From positions 11,408,001 through 11,472,000 of the forward strand of contig NC_003284.9 in assembly GCF_000002985.6 (NCBI RefSeq): a DNA stretch of 64,000 nucleotides. Direction: 5' to 3'. Numbering within the stretch: the stretch's first letter is position 1; the number at the start of each line of letters is the position of its first letter. Below the pieces are notes generated by a model that was not told the DNA's origin, made no database searches, and worked only from the letters and a program-made list of their open reading frames with translations. Positions 26,739 through 36,274 of this stretch are shown piece by piece. Position numbers and translations under genes: made by a program. This DNA is from Caenorhabditis elegans (lineage: Eukaryota > Nematoda > Chromadorea > Rhabditida > Rhabditidae).

Positions 26739-27899
26739 TCATATTTTCAAAAATTTGGCAAAACTGACTGGTTGTTTGAACGGTTTCAGAATTACAAGAC
26801 TAGCGAGCCAGGAGGGCTTGCTAGTCTTCTCCTTGTAGAAACCATGGATCGGCGTCGATGATTCCATTTCTTCGGATACGCCCCCGATCCGAGTACTATC
26901 AGATTGAAGCAGCTCAAATCTCTCCAAATCTAGCCATCGTCCATCACGGACCCAACGCAAGATGAACTGGTTCACGGTTTCGACTTCCCACCTGGTGTCC
27001 GACAACATGAGCCGAGTGAAATTTGAATCCATAACATATCCGAAGTTAACCCATCTAGCATCCATGATGCACATACGATTCAAAGATCTGCAAAAAATTT
27101 AGTTTTCTACTTTCTCAACTCTCAAGTTTTTTGGCGAAATTCAATGGTCAATTTTATGCATCCTTTTCAAAAAACCAGAAATTGTTCTTAAAACTTGATT
27201 TGATTTGACTAATTTGACTGATTGACTTGGTTTGAAAAACCAATAAGAGTTCAAACAAATTCAGATGAAAATTGAAAGCTCTTGTTACTAATATGTATGA
27301 TTATCTAAAAATAATTCTTAACCGTACTCGTTTTAGTGATTACAGCTAGAGAAAACCGACCATGCTTTTAAAAAGAGCACTTACATGAGTCAGATTGAAG
27401 AGAGGTATGGAGAACCGAAACTCAATGATGATTCCCTCTAAAATCAAATATTCCGGAAAATTGATGACTGCAGACTGACGTGTTTGTTCGGGTTTATATT
27501 TCCCGACACTATCGCCACTAGGTTATTGTTGAAAATTCGATGATGAGTGTGCTGTCTCATTCTCAAAGTACATTCATCCATATTGGCCACGGCGAGTCCA
27601 CCACGACAACTAAAAATTGTAGCAAAAAAATCGAGGCAGGGTTGTAAAAACTCTTCATAGATGTCCGTGGAGTAGTGGAATCTGGTTTTCTGGTCGTAAC
27701 TGGAATATTTTTAGACAATTGAGAGCTGAAAATGAATAATATCACTCACTTCATCGGCAATCTTAGATCTCCAGATTTCACAGTCCTATTGAAAACTGCG
27801 CAATGCCGTGGAAGGTAGCTTCAGAAATTGACTGTATGGTATCAATTCAGGAGGCGGTCGTCGATTCTTCGGTTTACAAAGTGAATAGATCAAACCCAT
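26739..27899 (-). pseudogene. F-box/FBA gene copy A, broken
   Basis: An ATG at 27899 opens a frame with an F-box start (FLKLPSTALRS) that hits a stop after FQ. Compared with copy B, the second half of the F-box and most of the next exon are missing; sequence resumes at GDLRLPMK. The FBA-type exon has two frame breaks: a 2-base insertion near 27605 and another shift near 27460. The last exon (up to 27083) carries a good F-box-associated type 2 segment (MDARWVNFG, WEVETVNQFILRWVRDG) but then departs from the family and ends at 26739. F-box proteins of this nematode family are thought to be SCF ubiquitin-ligase adaptors; this copy could not make one. Confidence 0.7.
26796..26828. repeat. 12-bp stem hairpin in copy A tail
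   Basis: AAGACTAGCGAG at 26796-26807 pairs with CTTGCTAGTCTT at 26817-26828 (one G-T pair) across a 9-base loop. It sits exactly where the F-box copy A protein stops resembling its family, so it may mark an inserted or rearranged segment. Confidence 0.5.
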
Positions 27900-28100
27900 T
27901 GCACAATCGAACGCGGTGAGTAAGAAGAAATGACAAATTTGATTGGAGGAGGATGTCGATTGGAGAGGGCATGGTCAATGTGGTCTCCTGGGAACCCAAG
28001 AGCGCGAGCGCGAACAGTTCTCATTTTGAGGAGGATTTTTTTTTGTCGGAAATTATCGATTTCAGACTTGCGAGGACTTTGGAAGTTTTCATTTGGAAAT
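27900..28100 (-). promoter_or_regulatory. Duplicated upstream region of F-box copy A
   Basis: About 190 bp upstream of copy A is strongly similar to the region upstream of copy B (29821-30015). It includes a GGAGAGGGC block, an alternating AGAGCGCGAGCGCGAACA tract, a TCTCATTTTGAGGAGGAT block, and GGAAATTATCGATT. The duplication therefore included the promoter region. Confidence 0.6.
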
Positions 28101-28123
28101 ATTTTAGAAATGAATATGATTTG

Positions 28124-29820
28124 CTAAGGGGCTACCGCATCACTACAAAAAGTATCTGAAAATTGAAGTTTTTGTAAAAAATCTGGTCTCACTATCAGTT
28201 TTTGATTGGAAAAAATTCTAGAAATTTTTGGAAGAAAAAGTATATTCAAATTTTGTTCAATATTGTTGTGATGAACCAAATGTTTCAAAGAAATATTATA
28301 TTTTTGAAAATAATTTAAATATTCATAAACGAAATAACTTAAAAAGAAATTATGAGCAATAGGATCAGATCTTGTACGATAGTTAAGCTCAATGGGAGGA
28401 TCGGGCCAGACAATAAACCGAAATGTATCAAGTCTATTTACAATCGTTGCAAGCGGTCCGCCAGGTTTAATCACATCAAGGTCTTTATGTGTGTTCAAGA
28501 CATAGGGATTTTGATGACAGTTCATTCTAAAATTATTAAAAATGAGTTTCGATGTGGCAAATATGGTAGACTTACATATAACATCTATTTCTGGGATTTT
28601 TATTCCATTTCTTCACATTTAATCCCGATCTCAGAACTTCTAAATCAAATCCTCTTCGACTAGTGTGGCGAATCTCAAATCTGTGCAATCGTAACCATTT
28701 TCCATTGAGCCAGAACTTGATGAACTCGTTCACGTCTCTTTCTGTTAGCTTGGAATCGTACAGCACGAGTCGAATAAATTTGAGCTACTTGAGATGGTTA
28801 AGAGTGACCCATTTTGCATCCATGATGCACACACACGATTTCGGGTGAAGATCTGCAAAAAAAAAGTTTTCTTGGAACATGTTTTTTTTTAAACTTCTCA
28901 GCAGTTTCAGACAGCAAAAACAACGTTTCCTAAACAGTTCCAATTTCATTTTCTATCCAAAATAAAATATCCCTTTCAATTCAGGTAGTTTCCACTGGAG
29001 TACGTTTCTGCCCAATTATAATCAGAATCACGCGGCAAAAAATACCTCACCTCGCTCGGATAAAATTCCTCTTCAAGGAAATGAATGTTAGCGACAATTC
29101 CCTCCAAAAGCACATAGTCTGGGAAAAACGATTGCAGATTTCCGTGGTTGCTCCCTAATCTTTGTACATCTTCACACAATTTCGTCACGAGGTTCTTGTT
29201 AAAAATTTGATGATCAGTGTGTTGTCTCATTTTCAAGGAACATTCGTTCAAATTGACCACTGCAATTTCACCACGGCAACTGAATCGTGGCGAAAACGTC
29301 GAGACAGGATTGTAAGCAGTCCTCATATTTGTCCGTGGAGCATGTGTAGCCGTTTCCGGGTCGTAGCTGGAAAATTTTGATTATTGAAAAATGAAAAAGT
29401 TATGTCCCACTTACTTTATCGGCAATCGTAGATCTCCAAATTTTACAGATATTTTGAAAATTGCAGGTTTTGAATTGAAGTTGAAATTGAGCGGTGGAAT
29501 CGTCTGCCAATTATTGTAACAAGCGATTGACTTATTCTTTCTTGAAATGTTGGCCTCAATGTGATCGAATGTGTGGTGATCAGGGTTGATCAATGCGATC
29601 ACTTCCGTCGACATTTGGGACAACTCGAATCTGAAAATTTGAATAGTTAAACTAACACGTCTGAAAAAAAACTTACATGTGAAGAGCGTCTAGTTGTTTG
29701 AAAACGATGCGTAATGCCTTTTGAGGTAGCTCCAAAAACCGAGGAAACCGTCTCAACAAGGCGTCCGACCAGGAGACGGGGATGTTCCTTTTGTTGACAA
29801 ATAGAACTGATAAATTTCAT
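28124..29820 (-). pseudogene. F-box/FBA gene copy B, probably broken
   Basis: Likely exons: 29820-29677 (F-box, FPRFLELPQKALRIVF), 29630-29415, 29366 to about 28990, 28852-28576, 28526-28124. The second to last exons carry the F-box-associated domain (NKSIACYNNW, DVNEFIKFWLNGKWLRL, then a C-terminal GGPLATIVNRLDTFRFIVW block). Two defects are visible: the ATG that matches the start in copy A (29820) is one base out of frame with the F-box, and an in-frame TAG lies at 28785-28787 inside the FBA domain. The C-terminal exon is open far past the usual end. A rescue by unusual splicing cannot be excluded, so it might be a decayed but transcribed gene. Confidence 0.65.
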
Positions 29821-30015
29821 TGCACAGTTGAACAGGGAGAGTACGAAGGAATGACAAATTCTATTGGAGGAAGAGGTTGAGTGGAGAGGGCCAATGTGTT
29901 ATCCTGGGAAGAGGAGAGAGCGCGCGCGCGAACAATTCTTCTCATTTTTGAGGAGGATGTTTTTGTTGGAAATTATCGATTCTATGTAGACCTACGGGGA
30001 CTTTGGAAGTTTTTG
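29821..30015 (-). promoter_or_regulatory. Duplicated upstream region of F-box copy B
   Basis: Counterpart of 27900-28100, with the same order of blocks. The alternating GC tract is longer and purer here (GAGCGCGCGCGCGAACAA). The similarity ends near 30015, which sets the right edge of the tandem duplication. Confidence 0.6.
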
Positions 30016-30447
30016 TTTTTTTTTTTCAAATAAATACATACAATTTCAGGAAAATCAGGAAATAGACTTTTCCCAACGGGAAGAGATGTATAACAAAATT
30101 TTTTGAAGACATTCTAAAAAATGGTAAAAGTTGTATACACAGAATATTTTGAATATCAAAAATAGTATCAAAATAATTCACAGCGTCATCAAACAATTGT
30201 TTTTTTTTTCAAAATACATAAAATGTCATTTTTTTCTATTTCTAGTGGCTTGCACAATTCAGAAAACTTCCTTCAGTTTCTGAAATAAGAAAGAAGGTTT
30301 CAAATCCCCAAACTGTATTACAACATTTTTTGTTAAGATTTCTGTTGATTTCCGATAGCTTTGGAAACATTCTGAAAACTCGTAGTTGCTAAGCCAATAT
30401 AGAAATTTCCAAATTCTCAAGCTATCACAACAGAAATTTTAAAAAAA

Positions 30448-31089
30448 CACGGGCTGTAAAAGGGTACCTGTGGTTAAGAATGACGAAATTTTAGAACCTG
30501 ATTAGCTACAGGAGTTTAAAATAAATTTTCTGAAAGTAAAATTAAAAAGGTTTTCGATATTTTTTCAACAAATTTTTTTTCTTTGAGATATAACATTTTT
30601 CATATTATAACTACTGTTTGAACTGAAAAATGCTTCAATTTTTGCAAATTCTCAGTCACAGTCATAGATTTTGAGTGGGTTTGATATGGGGAACATACCA
30701 ATTAACTGATTTCAAAAAGTTTCATCAAAACTCAAACTCAATTTTTCCAATTTTTTTTTTCGAAACTCTATTTGAGATGTTTGGCTAAAAATTGTTTTGT
30801 CCAACTTTGTTCAAATGTGTCGAATTAATTTAATTAACATAATTACTCACAGAGCCTGTGCTTTAAGCATTTTAAATTATTCGAAGAACTAAATAGAAAT
30901 CAATGAAATTCTGTACTAACTCAAAAAATCTTGGTAAAATGAAAAGTTTCAAAAAAAAACTATATCCAAAGATTTGTTTAATTGCATTAAACAATCTTTT
31001 TTACTGCTTTCTTTCAGAAAATTAACTAAAAATATACTTTACTGTGCTCGTTTTTGAGATTACGGCCAGGTACCCATTTACAGCCCGTG
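30448..31089. repeat. Inverted repeat pair (about 27 bp arms)
   Basis: CACGGGCTGTAAAAGGGTAC at 30448-30467 (similarity continues to about 30474) is inverted at 31067-31089, where GGTACCCATTTACAGCCCG reads on the plus strand. The sequence inside shows no further long pairing. It may be the ends of a small non-autonomous DNA element or two unrelated copies of a dispersed repeat. Confidence 0.45.
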
Positions 31090-31607
31090 CGGTCGTCTCC
31101 CCCCTTCTTCCCTTCTTCCCACAGGTCCACAACGCCTCCTGCTGGCAACCCTCTATAGGAGACGATCTGTAATGGTCTCCCTCCTGTCTGCGTCTCCGCC
31201 TCTATCACGCTCTCTCTTTCTTTGCTCAGGGGAAACGCCGGGTCTCCGTTCATCCAACCTCCCAATTGTTTTTCTGTCATTCACTCCTTTTTGCTTATAC
31301 CCCCTTCTTGTGAGTACATCCCACCCTGTAGATGTGCACCTTGCTTGATAAACCAGGTCCGCAGTCCGATTTAGGGGCTCGTGTTTTGGAACAGTTAAGG
31401 AAACCATGCTCTGTTGTATTTAGCTGGTTTCGCTACTAGCACTCCTTTTTTGTCCTGAGTTGATCGTGTTTGAAGCGGATTTCCGATCTAAATTTGTATA
31501 AATTAAAAAATCCTTTTTTCAACAAAAAAAAACAACAAAAAAATCCAAAGAAAAGAGTTGAAATTCTTCGACTCTTCTCGACTTTTACTCAATTTTCACC
31601 TCGACAG

Positions 31608-31625
31608 CTAGAATAATTATTCTAG
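31608..31625. repeat. Perfect 18-bp palindrome
   Basis: CTAGAATAATTATTCTAG is self-complementary across its full length. No gene start is nearby. Confidence 0.6.
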
Positions 31626-32687
31626 AAGAAGTACGCTTTCCAACTTTCCTTATCTTTTTTTCTCATCCCAATCCCTTCCCAAATCCCTACACCTGTTATG
31701 TTATGCATGCTCCCCTTCGTGTTTCAACATGGATCGACGGATCGAACGATGGATGGATTCTCTGGAACTGTTACTGGAACAGTCTCTCGTGCTTCGGACC
31801 ATCAATGGACACTGCTACATCCCTCTCTCTTTCCCCTTCCCCCTCTTTGTTGGAAAGTTAGTACGAATCATTTTCTCATTTAGTATCAAACTTCTAAAAA
31901 CAGAAGTTCAACTTCTACAAACAGAAGTTTAAATATAACACCGCTAAGACAACTGTCTGAAACGGGAGATCGGAATTGAGGCTTAAACACATCATACACC
32001 GTACTCAGAGGTAGCAAATAAAGGCTAATGACCAGCATCATGCTAGTACTTCTGTTCCTAACGAACAATGAGAACCGATGTTGGGCCCATACTGCGATAC
32101 GATCGGGCGGTTCTTGCTCTATGGAATACTTGGGTGATGATGTGCAGTTCTTACGGTGTAGAGCATCACATGAAGAAGCAACTCCTATTCAAAGCTATCG
32201 TCACCACCTGCATAATCACCAAGCAACAGCAAGGAGCAGCAAAAGGACGACCGTAAGACGTAAGATAAGAAGTTTATTTTTAACATTTTTGATTCAAAAA
32301 TTCGAAATTTAGTTCTCAAAAATCAAAGATTCCAAAAAATTGGAATCAATTTTGCCAAACCCGAATTTTTCTTTAAAAAAAAAATCCTGAATAAAAATTT
32401 CTGAAAATTTAGGATTTACAAAAAAAGCCAAGAGCTAAAGATTTCAGTGGATTCATTCGGTCGGGTATTCCGGAATGGCTCCGGCCACAAAACTGTGCCT
32501 TACAAAACTGTTTTCCGCAACCATCACACGGTTTGGAAATGGAAAACATTGTTTGGTAATTATAAAAGTGCTTTTTTACAGAACAGAAGAAGAAGGAACG
32601 AACGACGACGGAAAGAAGACATGGACAAAAGGTGGCGATAGTATGGAGTTGAATTGGAACGAGATCTCATTCAAAAGATCTCGAGCG

Positions 32688-32864
32688 ACGATGGATCGGG
32701 ATGGATCGGGATGGAACGATAGATTCAAATGCGACGATCGGGTTCGGCGGACGGGATGGATTCGGGATGGACTCGGGATGGATGAGGATGGATCGGGATG
32801 GATTGGGATGGATCGGGATGGATCGGGATGGATCGGGATGGATCGGGATGGATCGGGATGGATC
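32688..32864 (+). repeat. 10-bp minisatellite GGATCGGGAT
   Basis: Tandem units of 10 bp, cleanest at 32781-32862, with degenerate 10-11 bp units at 32688-32715 and 32752-32780. It is open in more than one frame (for instance a repeating MDRDGSGWIG peptide), as expected for a unit without stops; I do not regard it as coding. Confidence 0.85.
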
Positions 32865-32878
32865 ACTCTCTCACGACT

Positions 32879-32972
32879 GTTTTCCGCCGGTTCAATTTTT
32901 GCCGCAAGTAGAGTTATTTATTAAGCCGGTTCGATTTTTTCCGCAAGTAGAGTTTTTAAGCCGGTTCGAGTT
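32879..32972 (+). repeat. About 36-bp tandem repeat, three copies
   Basis: Units share GCCGGTTCGATTTTTTCCGC and AAGTAGAGTTTTTAA; lengths vary slightly. Immediately follows the 10-bp array. Confidence 0.7.
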
Positions 32973-32975
32973 TTA

Positions 32976-33052: not shown

Positions 33053-34780
33053 CCGTAATGCCTAACTTTAGAATCTGCCGTAATGCCAATTTATAGAATC
33101 TGCCGTAATGCCAATTTATAGAATCTGCCGTAATGCCAATTTAAAGAATCTACCGTAATACCAATTTATAAAATCTGCCGTAATGCCAATTTAAAGAATC
33201 TGCCGTAATGCCAATTTATAGAATCTGCCGTAATGCCAATTTATAGAATCTGCCGTAATGCCAATTTATAGAATCTGCCGTAATGCCAATTTATAGAATC
33301 TGCCGTAATGCCAATTTAAAGAATCTGCCGTAATGCCAATTTATAGAATCTGCCGTAATGCCAATTTAAAGAATGTACCGTAATACCAATTTATAGAATC
33401 TGCCGTAATGCCAATTTATAGAATCTGCCGTAATGCCAATTTATAGAATCTGCCGTAATGCCAATTTATAGAATCTGCCGTAATGCCAATTTATAGAATC
33501 TGCCGTAATGCCAATTCATAGAATCTGCCGTAATGCCAATTTATAGAATCTGCCGTAATGCCAATTTAAAGAATCTGCCGTAATGCCAATTTATAGAATC
33601 TACCGTAATACCAATTTAAAGAATCTGCCGTAATGCCAATTTATAGAATCTGCCGTAATGCCAATTTAAAGAATCTGCCGTAATGCCAATTTATAGAATC
33701 TACCGTAATACCAATTTAAAGAATCTGCCGTAATGCCAATTTATAGAATCTGCCGTAATGCCAATTTAAAGAATCTACCGTAATACCAATTTATAAAATC
33801 TGCCGTAATGCCAATTTAAAGAATCTGCCGTAATGCCAATTTATAGAATCTGCCGTAATGCCAATTTAAAGAATCTACCGTAATACCAATTTATAGAATC
33901 TGCCGTAATGCCAATTTAAAGAATCTGCCGTAATGCCAATTTATAGAATCTGCCGTAATGCCAATTTATAGAATCTGCCGTAATGCCAATTTATAGAATC
34001 TGCCGTAATGCCAATTTATAGAATCTGCCGTAATGCCAATTTATAGAATCTGCCGTAATGCCAATTTATAGAATCTGCCGTAATGCCAATTTATAGAATC
34101 TACCGTAATACCAATTTAAAGAATCTGCCGTAATGCCAATTTATAGAATCTGCCGTAATGCCAATTTATAGAATCTGCCGTAATGCCAATTTATAGAATC
34201 TGCCGTAATGCCAATTTATAGAATCTGCCGTAATGCCAATTTATAGAATCTGCCGTAATGCCAATTTATAGAATCTACCGTAATACCAATTTAAAGAATC
34301 TGCCGTAATGCCAATTTATAGAATCTGCCGTAATGCCAATTTATAGAATCTGCCGTAATGCCAATTTATAGAATCTGCCGTAATGCCAATTTATAGAATC
34401 TGCCGTAATGCCAATTTATAGAATCTACCGTAATACCAATTTATAGAATCTGCCGTAATGCCAATTTATAGAATCTGCCGTAATGCCAATTTATAGAATC
34501 TGCCGTAATGCCAATTTATAGAATCTGCCGTAATGCCAATTTATAGAATCTGCCGTAATGCCAATTTATAGAATCTGCCGTAATGCCAATTTATAGAATC
34601 TGCCGTAATGCCAATTTATAGAATCTGCCGTAATGCCAATTTATAGAATCTGCCGTAATGCCAATTTATAGAATCTGCCGTAATGCCAATTTAAAGAATC
34701 TGCCGTAATGCCAATTTATAGAATCTGCCGTAATGCCAATTCATAGAATCTGCCGTAATGCCAATTTATAGAATCTGCCG
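33053..34780 (+). repeat. 25-bp satellite, about 69 copies
   Basis: Exact 25-bp period with the core CCGTAATGCC and the tail ATAGAATCTG. Two main variable spots are seen: TTTATAGA versus TTTAAAGA, and TGCCGTAATGCC versus TACCGTAATACC. Units are otherwise nearly identical, which points to recent amplification or homogenisation. Confidence 0.95.
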
Positions 34781-34787
34781 GCGGATT
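34772..34787. repeat. Palindromic junction between the two satellites
   Basis: AATCTGCCGGCGGATT is a palindrome with one mismatched pair, centred between 34779 and 34780. It is the point where the 25-bp array stops and the 26-bp array starts in the opposite orientation. Confidence 0.8.
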
Positions 34788-35812
34788 TTAGAAAAATGAC
34801 ATTGCGGCGGATTTTTGAAAAATGGCATTGCGGCGGATTTTAGAAAAATGGCATTGCGGCGGATTTCAGAAAAATGGCACTGCGGCAGATTTCAGAAAAA
34901 TGGCATTGCGGCGGATTTCAGAAAAATGGCATTGCGGCGGATTTCAGAAAAATGGCATTGCGGCGGATTTTAGAAAAATGGCATTGCGGCGGATTTTAGA
35001 AAAATGACATTGCGGCGGATTTCAGAAAAATGGCATTGCGGCGGATTTTAGAAAAATGGCATTGCGGCGGATTTTAGAAAAATGGCATTGCGGCGGATTT
35101 CAGAAAAATGGCACTGCGGCGGATTTCAGAAAAATGGCATTGCGGCGGATTTCAGAAAAATGGCATTGCGGCGGATTTTAGAAAAATGGCATTGCGGCGG
35201 ATTTTAGAAAAATGACATTGCGGCGGATTTTAGAAAAATGACATTGCGGCGAATTTTAGAAAAATGGCATTGCGGCGGATTTTTGAAAAATGGCATTGCG
35301 GCGGATTTTTGAAAATGGCATTGCGGCGGATTTTAGAAAAATGGCATTGCGGCAGATTTCAGAAAAATGGCACTGCGGCGGATTTTAGAAAAATGGCATT
35401 GCGGCGGATTTCAGAAAAATGGCATTGCGGCGGATTTTAGAAAAATGGCATTGCGGCAGATTTCAGAAAAATGGCATTGCGGCGGATTTCAGAAAAATGG
35501 CACTGCGGCGGATTTCAGAAAAATGGCACTGCGGCGGATTTCAGAAAAATGGCATTGCGGCGGATTTCAGAAAAATGGCATTGCGGCGGATTTTTGCAAA
35601 ATGGCATTGCGGCGGATTTTAGAAAAATGGCATTGCGGCGGATTTCAGAAAAATGGCATTGCGGCGGATTTTAGAAAAATGGCATTGCGGCGGATTTTAG
35701 AAAAATGACATTGCGGCGGATTTTAGAAAAATGACATTGCGGCGGATTTTAGAAAAATGACATTGCGGCGAATTTTAGAAAAATGACATTGCGGCGGATT
35801 TTAGAAAAACGG
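34781..35812 (-). repeat. 26-bp satellite, about 40 copies, inverted relative to the 25-bp one
   Basis: Period 26 bp on the plus strand with the core GCGGCGGATTT and AAAAATGGCATT. Read on the minus strand, the unit becomes CCGC-AATGCC-A(T)n-CTA-AAATCCG, which aligns to the 25-bp unit CCGT-AATGCC-A...TA-GAATCTG with about one indel and six changes. All three plus-strand frames lack stops for long runs, giving 26-residue peptide repeats. Confidence 0.93.
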
Positions 35813-35950
35813 CAGCTCATGTAAAAGAGCGCTTCATGTGTTACCATACTTTTGGCCCACCCTGTATTGTCTTTATTTTCAAAAAGAAAAAACTACAGAC
35901 CCGTGCACATATAGGTTCAAAAAGTCTTTTTAAAAGCATTTTTTATAAAA

Positions 35951-36274
35951 ATTGCATACAGAGCATTTTTTTCCACTTCGACGGCTTTAGAGGGGGGGCG
36001 CATTTATGCGGAAGGGTCTTGCCGTGCATTTAGTCATCATTTTTAGCAGTTTATGTGTAAAATTCGCGTAGATCACATGTAGATCACAAAATATTTATCT
36101 CATATTTCGTATTTCTGTTGCTTTTTCACAAATTAATTGTGATCTACGTGTGATCTCCTCGAGTTTTGAAAAGACATTGTTAAAAATGATGACTGAATGC
36201 GCTGCAAGACCCTTCCGCATAAATGCGCCCCCTTTAAAGTCGTAGAAGTGGAAAAAAATGCACTGTATAAATCG
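35951..36274. mobile_element. Fold-back (palindromic) non-autonomous DNA element
   Basis: A left arm of about 95 bp (35951-36048) and a right arm (36181-36274) are inverted copies, roughly 85-90% alike. Shared blocks include CATTTTTTTCCACTTC, GCGCATTTATGCGGAAGGGT and AGTCATCATTTTTA. A second, inner inverted pair lies at 36068-36091 and 36133-36156 (GTAGATCACATGTAGATCAC and its counterpart). The whole 324 bp can fold into one long hairpin, as in palindromic MITEs. No transposase and no clear target-site duplication were seen. Confidence 0.75.

What the first reader, a model, noticed from the sequence alone, without database searches (positions are those of the whole stretch)
33053..35812. Two related satellites arranged head to head, forming a 2.8-kb divergent palindrome
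The 25-bp array (33053-34780) and the 26-bp array (34781-35812) look unrelated on the plus strand. The reverse complement of the 26-bp unit shares CCG-AATGCC-A-TTT-TA-AATC-G with the 25-bp unit, with one indel. The arrays meet at a palindromic joint (34772-34787). One ancestral monomer was probably inverted, then each arm was amplified and homogenised on its own. Such a structure could fold, stall replication or yield hairpin RNA.
Basis: seen in the sequence. Interest (0 to 1): 0.75.

Follow-up and report, generated by a model that had tools for sequence, protein, structure and literature searches.

The report
Head-to-head related satellite arrays in worm
Two short tandem-repeat arrays that seem to descend from one ancestral repeat lie back to back in opposite directions on a nematode X chromosome; the arrangement is real and could fold into a long hairpin, but both repeats also exist as separate families elsewhere in the genome, so it is more likely a local patchwork than a structure built by one inversion on the spot.

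Summary
A 25-bp array (33053-34780, 69 copies) abuts a 26-bp array (to 35812/14, 40 copies). The reverse-complemented 26-mer matches the 25-mer in 20 of 26 columns; 6 of 20,000 dinucleotide shuffles do as well. The joint is an imperfect palindrome (14 of 16 bases, perfect GCCGGC core). The best inverted match is about 2.06 kb at 73% identity, not 2.8 kb.

The proposed history is only partly supported. Searches of the whole genome (its sizes fit C. elegans N2) find the 25-mer at 3 other loci and the 26-mer at 8 others (lower bounds). Among these, both types meet only here and in one short tract on C1, in the SAME orientation. Local monomers of the two types are no nearer to each other than those elsewhere, and hardly more so at the joint.

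The left side is one truncated copy of a dispersed repeat carrying short arrays (10-mer, 37-39-mer, 7-mer). The right edge is a broken transposon end. Inverted 26-mer joints occur at three other loci. Best reading: a mosaic satellite cluster, probably made by template switching. No function was shown; hairpin RNA is possible, untested.

The parts
30101..32560 (+). One truncated copy of a dispersed long repeat; other copies continue past 30101
   Evidence: Longest matches about 89-94% identical to copies on C2 (two inverted arms), C3, C5 (two) and C6 (two); about 69-76% to C1 and to both arms on C4; truncation
32690..32864 (+). 10-bp tandem array (GATGGATCGG / CGGGATGGAT)
   Evidence: TRF; 10-mer arrays also follow the arm in most other copies fetched, not in the one at C6:0.317 Mb
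32886..32974 (+). Short 37-39-bp tandem tract (GCCGGTTCGATTTTTGCCGC...)
   Evidence: TRF; related 34-36-bp tracts beside the arm on C2, C3, C5 and C6, and 17-bp arrays on C1 and C4
32974..33053 (+). 7-bp tandem array (TACGCTA)
   Evidence: TRF; a 7-mer array lies within about 10 bp of the 25-mer array at 4 of 4 25-mer loci
33053..34780 (+). 25-bp satellite array, 69 copies
   Evidence: TRF; relatives 95-97% identical on C4, 94% on C1
34772..34787 (.). Imperfect palindromic joint, perfect core GCCGGC
   Evidence: sequence; unique in genome at up to 3 mismatches
34781..35812 (-). 26-bp satellite array, 40 copies; the homologous orientation reads on the minus strand
   Evidence: TRF; relatives at 84-98% identity at 8 other loci
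35814..35867 (-). 54-bp end of a high-copy DNA transposon (953 bp in the copy measured); the rest of it is absent from the window
   Evidence: 39 other places among the 40 scored of 94 candidates; terminal structure; only termini match in the window

Best explanation
This is a mosaic satellite cluster. A dispersed repeat that carries a recurring series of tandem arrays (10-mer, 34-39-mer, 7-mer, at two loci followed by the 25-mer) met, end to end and in opposite orientation, an array of the related 26-mer family. The fusion point is a palindromic hexamer at the same place in both monomers. The most likely route is template switching or end joining at that palindrome during replication or break repair, with growth of both arrays by duplication; another rearrangement cut off the right end inside a DNA transposon. 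Shown: the arrays, their homology, their separate existence elsewhere, the similar order of arrays on C4 and X, the unique joint and the broken flanks. Inferred: template switching, the way of growth, the order of events, and absence of a selected function. If the plus strand is transcribed it would form a long bulged hairpin.
For: Homology of monomers. A 48-bp tract inside C1:13359800-13359860 holds a complete 26-mer between 25-mer pieces, in the same orientation, with all 8 diagnostic words tested (4 per type); in the three 25-mer arrays checked the 26-type words occur 2 times in all, and the 25-type word TAGAATC occurs 0 times in the four 26-mer arrays checked. Separate loci: 25-mer at 4 places, 26-mer at 9, shared only here plus the hybrid. 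Identity to own consensus 0.94-1.00, to the other 0.72-0.77, with only a slight rise toward the joint. Similar order of arrays on C4 (10-mer, 163-mer, 17-mer, 7-mer, 25-mer) and on X. A 10-base trace of the 7-mer next to AATTCC-rich sequence also borders a 26-mer tract at C6:12.608 Mb, mirroring the 25-mer at C1:4.660 Mb. Inverted 26-mer joints at three other sites, C1:10953093, C4:12732684, C6:1644680, and 7-mer head-to-head joints at two spots on C2 (the pattern contains the palindrome GCGTATACGC by design). A control motif of another satellite (CAGAGAGTAAAA, from a table in PMC3634726) gives 0 inverted joints in either orientation. Weak: repeated blocks of 7 (25-mer) and 6 (26-mer) monomers.
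Against: No intermediate of the joint is seen. The three other 26-mer joints show no clear palindromic core by eye, so the palindrome may be chance. Birth of both families at this X locus with later spread is not excluded. The 7-mer lies the other way round relative to the 25-mer at both C4 loci, so the series is not strictly colinear. The hybrid lacks two bases of the 25-mer, and three of its four 25-type words also occur rarely in 26-mer arrays (1, 2 and 14 times). The block-duplication sign is weak: the 25-mer block is mostly the commonest monomer, and my split of the 26-mer array gave 44 pieces for 40 copies. Genome counts are lower bounds by the tool's own note. I hold no long reads, and published work finds long C. 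elegans satellites sized differently between assemblies (PMC6210790, first of three parts read).
Confidence: 0.6

Rival explanations
1. In-situ inversion: one monomer was inverted at this locus, each arm was amplified and diverged, and copies later seeded the other loci.
For: The joint lies at the homologous position of both monomers and at a palindrome; among the loci found only this one has long arrays of both types; a slight rise in cross-type likeness toward the joint.
Against: Same-orientation hybrid on C1; the local 25-mers are the least like the 26-mer of four loci; on C4 the 25-mer follows a similar array series without a 26-mer.
Confidence: 0.17
2. The locus is a decayed foldback transposon: long terminal inverted repeats carrying tandem arrays, whose right arm was lost.
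For: The arm is dispersed; on C4 two 2.9-kb arms at 96.8% identity enclose the 25-mer array, on C2 the outer parts of two arms are 98-99.7% identical.
Against: No right arm seen in the window (25 longest of 34 inverted pairs shown); no target-site duplication and differing outer ends on C4; on C2 the right arm ends inside a 196-codon open frame, as in a segmental duplication.
Confidence: 0.13
3. Functional hairpin source: the locus is transcribed on the plus strand and feeds small RNAs or editing.
For: 301 nt across the joint: plus strand -161.8 kcal/mol, z -16.6; minus strand -120.7, z -11.1; 25-mer array alone z +2.6. With G-U pairs 83% of columns pair on the plus strand against 76% on the minus.
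Against: No transcription or small-RNA data could be consulted. Folding follows from the inverted arrangement alone. Only three consensus differences are transitions; all three keep G-U pairs on the plus strand, which chance gives on one strand or the other in one case of four, and common 26-mer variants break further plus-strand pairs (inspection).
Confidence: 0.06
4. Assembly artefact: the joint or orientation of the 26-mer array is a mis-assembly.
For: Long satellites differ in length between assemblies (PMC6210790, first of three parts read).
Against: The same paper's abstract says satellites were in general found in equivalent regions in the long-read assemblies; both flanks are specific and the joint is a clean base-level fusion.
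Confidence: 0.04

Closest known systems
Dispersed satellites of Caenorhabditis elegans (Subirana and Messeguer; PMC3634726 first of four parts read; PMC4595182 passages and sections 11 and 22 read)
   Same: Short units (12-200 bp) repeated ten or more times, scattered over the chromosomes, thought to grow by duplication of 100-300-base blocks, some of them carried by transposons.
   Different: The text that I saw does not describe two related families joined head to head ('inverted', 'adjacent' and 'orientation' do not occur in the main text of PMC4595182). Supplementary family tables could not be opened, so I do not know whether these two units have family names there.
Tetris foldback element of Drosophila virilis (PMC4079207, abstract and outline read)
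   Same: Long inverted repeats with internal tandem repeats that seed longer satellite arrays; the C4 relative looks similar.
   Different: No target duplication or shared terminus found on C4; the window has only one arm.
Tm1 Mutator/foldback family of root-knot nematodes (PMC3169594, passages read)
   Same: Nematode element with inverted repeats made partly of short tandem units.
   Different: Tm1 has 9-bp target duplications and defined terminal motifs; neither was found at the C4 relative, the one element whose two ends were checked for them.

Membership tests
Dispersed C. elegans satellite | Unit of about 12-200 bp repeated at least ten times | tested here: met
   25 bp x 69 and 26 bp x 40; definition from PMC3634726
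Dispersed C. elegans satellite | Same unit at several scattered loci | tested here: met
   25-mer at 4 loci, 26-mer at 9, window included, lower bounds
Foldback transposon | Two long inverted terminal repeats with internal tandem repeats | tested here: not met
   Only one arm found in the window; relatives on C4 and C2 have two arms
Foldback transposon | Target-site duplication and conserved termini | tested here: not met
   C4 relative: shared words of at most 7 bases, not at the arm ends; outer ends differ. The window copy itself has no second end to test
Helitron-borne satellite | Array lies inside a Helitron with its own termini | not tested
   No Helitron reference sequence was on hand
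Hairpin RNA locus | Transcript folds into a long duplex | tested here: met
   Predicted only: z -16.6 plus, -11.1 minus strand
Hairpin RNA locus | Transcription, small RNAs or editing at the locus | not testable with these tools
   No expression data available

The most novel reading that the evidence does not exclude
The 25/26-mer family tends to turn round: 7 of the 12 loci found show either an inverted joint (X window, C4:12.73, C6:1.64, C1:10.95 Mb) or lie inside a palindrome or between opposed arrays (C4:11.61, C4:14.21, C6:12.608 Mb). Its arrays would act as seeds or landing sites for palindrome formation, so that satellites and palindromes make each other in this genome. There is no proper genome-wide null for this proportion yet.
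Probability: 0.17. Interest if true: 0.55.

Novelty: new member of a known kind. Interest (0 to 1): 0.3.

Why it matters
Head-to-head satellites are natural test sites for how arrays invert, how fast they become uniform, and whether hairpin transcripts bring silencing. The locus is in what appears to be the reference genome of a model animal, so the question of how satellites change orientation can be checked with long reads and wild isolates. The locus itself is most likely an ordinary by-product of repeat turnover.

Tried and rejected
Foldback transposon as the full explanation: rejected for the window because no right arm was found and the C4 relative has no target duplication or shared ends, though relatives on C4 and C2 are true long inverted repeats. 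Matching the left and right flanks of the locus as terminal repeats: none among the 25 longest of 34 inverted pairs shown, and one match only, itself, for the right-hand terminus. Reading the transposon end at 35814-35867 as the right terminus of an element that contains the arrays: its body and second end are not in the window. tRNA and Rfam scans of the window: 0 hits. Pfam scan of 8 of the 33 open frames listed: nothing that marks a transposase. Selection on G-U pairing: three transitions all keep plus-strand pairing, which is expected by chance in one case of four; not taken as evidence. The window as control for long inverted arms: one search printed nothing because of my filter; one search corrected it and its 26 printed rows (cut by my limit) show only the satellite palindrome and one 313-bp palindrome; a weak control. 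The control for inverted joints is one other satellite motif, with 2,304 occurrences by Table 2 of PMC3634726; number of arrays and unit differ, so it is suggestive only. Inverted joints within the 25-mer, and 7-mer joints of the tail-to-tail kind, were not searched. Paper searches; none of the listed titles or abstract beginnings names this locus.

Full report
WHERE IT IS. The window is C6:11408001-11472000 of a genome of 100,286,401 bases in 7 contigs. Contig lengths fit the C. elegans N2 reference, with C6 as X and C1-C5 as I-V; this naming is from recall, and the total agrees with the 100.29 Mb given in PMC6210790.

THE OBSERVATION. Tandem Repeats Finder reports a 25-bp array at 33053-34780 (69.1 copies) and a 26-bp array at 34779-35814 (39.9 copies), each 95% matched, directly abutting. 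On the same strand the units score 12, in opposite orientation 32, with 20 identical columns of 26. 0 of 5,000 mononucleotide shuffles and 6 of 20,000 dinucleotide shuffles reach 32. The joint has a perfect 6-base core and matches its reverse complement at 14 of 16 positions over 34772-34787 (counted on the sequence). The 29 bases across it occur once in the genome at up to 3 mismatches. The best-scoring inverted self-match is 2,058 columns at 73% identity; longer ones up to 2,332 columns at 70% were printed.

RELATIVES. The 25-mer array finds 9 matches at 4 loci: the window, C4:11.610-11.616 Mb (about 200 copies), C4:14.209 Mb (about 14 copies) and C1:4.660 Mb (about 2 copies). The 26-mer array finds 22 matches at 9 loci: the window, C1:4.54 (172 copies), C4:12.73 (85), C6:1.64, C6:12.608, C6:12.611, C1:10.95, C6:9.19 and C1:13.36 Mb. 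The tool calls such counts lower bounds. Monomers agree with their own consensus at 0.94-1.00 at the ten arrays tested, and with the other type's at 0.72-0.77. Within the local arrays the ten monomers at the joint are only slightly nearer to the other type than the ten far from it (0.762 vs 0.750 and 0.742 vs 0.735). The 25-mers on C4:11.6 are nearer to the 26-mer (0.774) than the local ones (0.749, the lowest of four).

THE HYBRID. Inside C1:13359800-13359860 the order is 25-mer end, one complete 26-mer, 25-mer start, all in one orientation; two bases of the 25-mer are missing. All 8 diagnostic words tested are present, 4 of each type. In the three 25-mer arrays examined the four 26-type words occur 2 times in all; in the four 26-mer arrays examined TAGAATC occurs 0 times, CCGTAATG 1, CAATTT 2 and ATCTGCCG 14 times. 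This supports common descent, and it shows that the two types have stood in the same orientation. The tract seems to be split from a second one by about 100 bp of another high-copy repeat.

THE SETTING. The left flank 30101-32560 belongs to a dispersed repeat with relatives on C1, C2, C3, C4, C5 and C6. Six stretches from other copies (two of them the two arms on C2) all continue alike beyond window 30101, so the window copy is truncated there. Most copies fetched carry a 10-mer array and a 34-36-mer or 17-mer tract beside the arm; a 7-mer array was seen in the fetched stretch of two of them, C6:0.317 and C4:11.6 Mb. On C4 the order toward the 25-mer is 10-mer, 163-mer, 17-mer, 7-mer, 25-mer, and on X it is 10-mer, 37-39-mer, 7-mer, 25-mer. 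The 7-mer points the other way relative to the 25-mer at both C4 loci, and the same way on X and at C1:4.660. A 7-mer array lies within about 10 bp of the 25-mer at 4 of 4 loci. A 26-mer tract at C6:12.608 is bordered by 10 bases of the same 7-mer repeat and then AATTCC-rich DNA, and C1:4.660 shows the same series with the 25-mer. On the right the 26-mer array stops at 35813, where a 54-bp transposon end begins; one copy with both ends measures 953 bp, and in the window only its termini match.

INVERTED JOINTS ELSEWHERE. A pattern for the 26-mer facing its own reverse complement within 30 bases gives three sites in the genome: C1:10953093, C4:12732684 and C6:1644680. The 7-mer has head-to-head joints at two spots on C2. 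One control motif from another satellite gives none in either orientation. On C4 the 25-mer array lies between 2.9-kb arms of 96.8% identity. At C4:14.209 it lies between oppositely oriented 14/7-mer arrays, and at C6:12.608 a 26-mer tract lies between inverted arms. In total 7 of the 12 loci found show an inverted joint or an enclosing palindrome. I have no proper genome-wide null for that proportion.

FOLDING. As RNA, 301 nt across the joint fold to -161.8 kcal/mol on the plus strand (z -16.6) and -120.7 on the minus strand (z -11.1), each against 100 shuffles. The 25-mer array alone folds less well than its shuffles (z +2.6). As DNA the plus strand gives z -11.1. This follows from the inverted arrangement and says nothing about expression.

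CONCLUSION. The arrays are homologous and inverted, as seen. The history is better described as the meeting of two already separate satellite families, in a mosaic of truncated repeats, perhaps by template switching at a palindrome (inferred), than as an inversion on the spot, which remains possible. Both arrays contain repeated multi-monomer blocks (weak), as the published growth model would have it (PMC4595182, section 22). No function is shown.

LITERATURE SEEN. PMC3634726: first of four parts. PMC4595182: 12 passages and sections 11 and 22. PMC6210790: first of three parts. PMC4079207: abstract and outline. PMC3169594: 12 passages. Others only in search listings.

The confidence of the best explanation went from 0.62 to 0.60 and that of in-situ inversion from 0.15 to 0.17 for the slight rise and the imperfect colinearity.

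Noticed in passing
G000 C4:11607669-11619211 (L078, L048, L044, L079): An 11.5-kb palindrome with 2.9-kb arms (96.8% identical) whose loop holds a 5-kb 25-mer array; no target duplication found.
   Followed up: partly
G000 C2:7435151-7455877 (L076, L077): Inverted duplication with 98-99.7% identical outer arm parts; the right arm ends inside an open frame that looks like a dienelactone hydrolase (name from recall, not tested). A 7-mer array that itself flips direction lies just left of it.
   Followed up: partly
G000 C1:13359800-13360000 (L028): Two short 26-mer-like tracts, one a 25/26 hybrid, about 100 bp apart, with part of a high-copy repeat between them.
   Followed up: partly
G000 C6:12606573-12609580 (L022, L025): Inverted arms partly made of a 31-bp tandem unit enclose a short 26-mer tract.
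   Followed up: no
window 35956-36268: A 313-bp imperfect palindrome (78%) just right of the arrays, perhaps a small inverted-repeat transposon.
   Followed up: no
window 26739-27098, minus strand: Open frame with a weak F-box-associated (FBA_2) match, E 7e-4, just under the curated cut-off.
   Followed up: no
window 27800-30100: This stretch also has relatives on C5, C3, C6 and C2 at about 73-93% identity, so the truncated repeat adjoins another duplicated segment.
   Followed up: no
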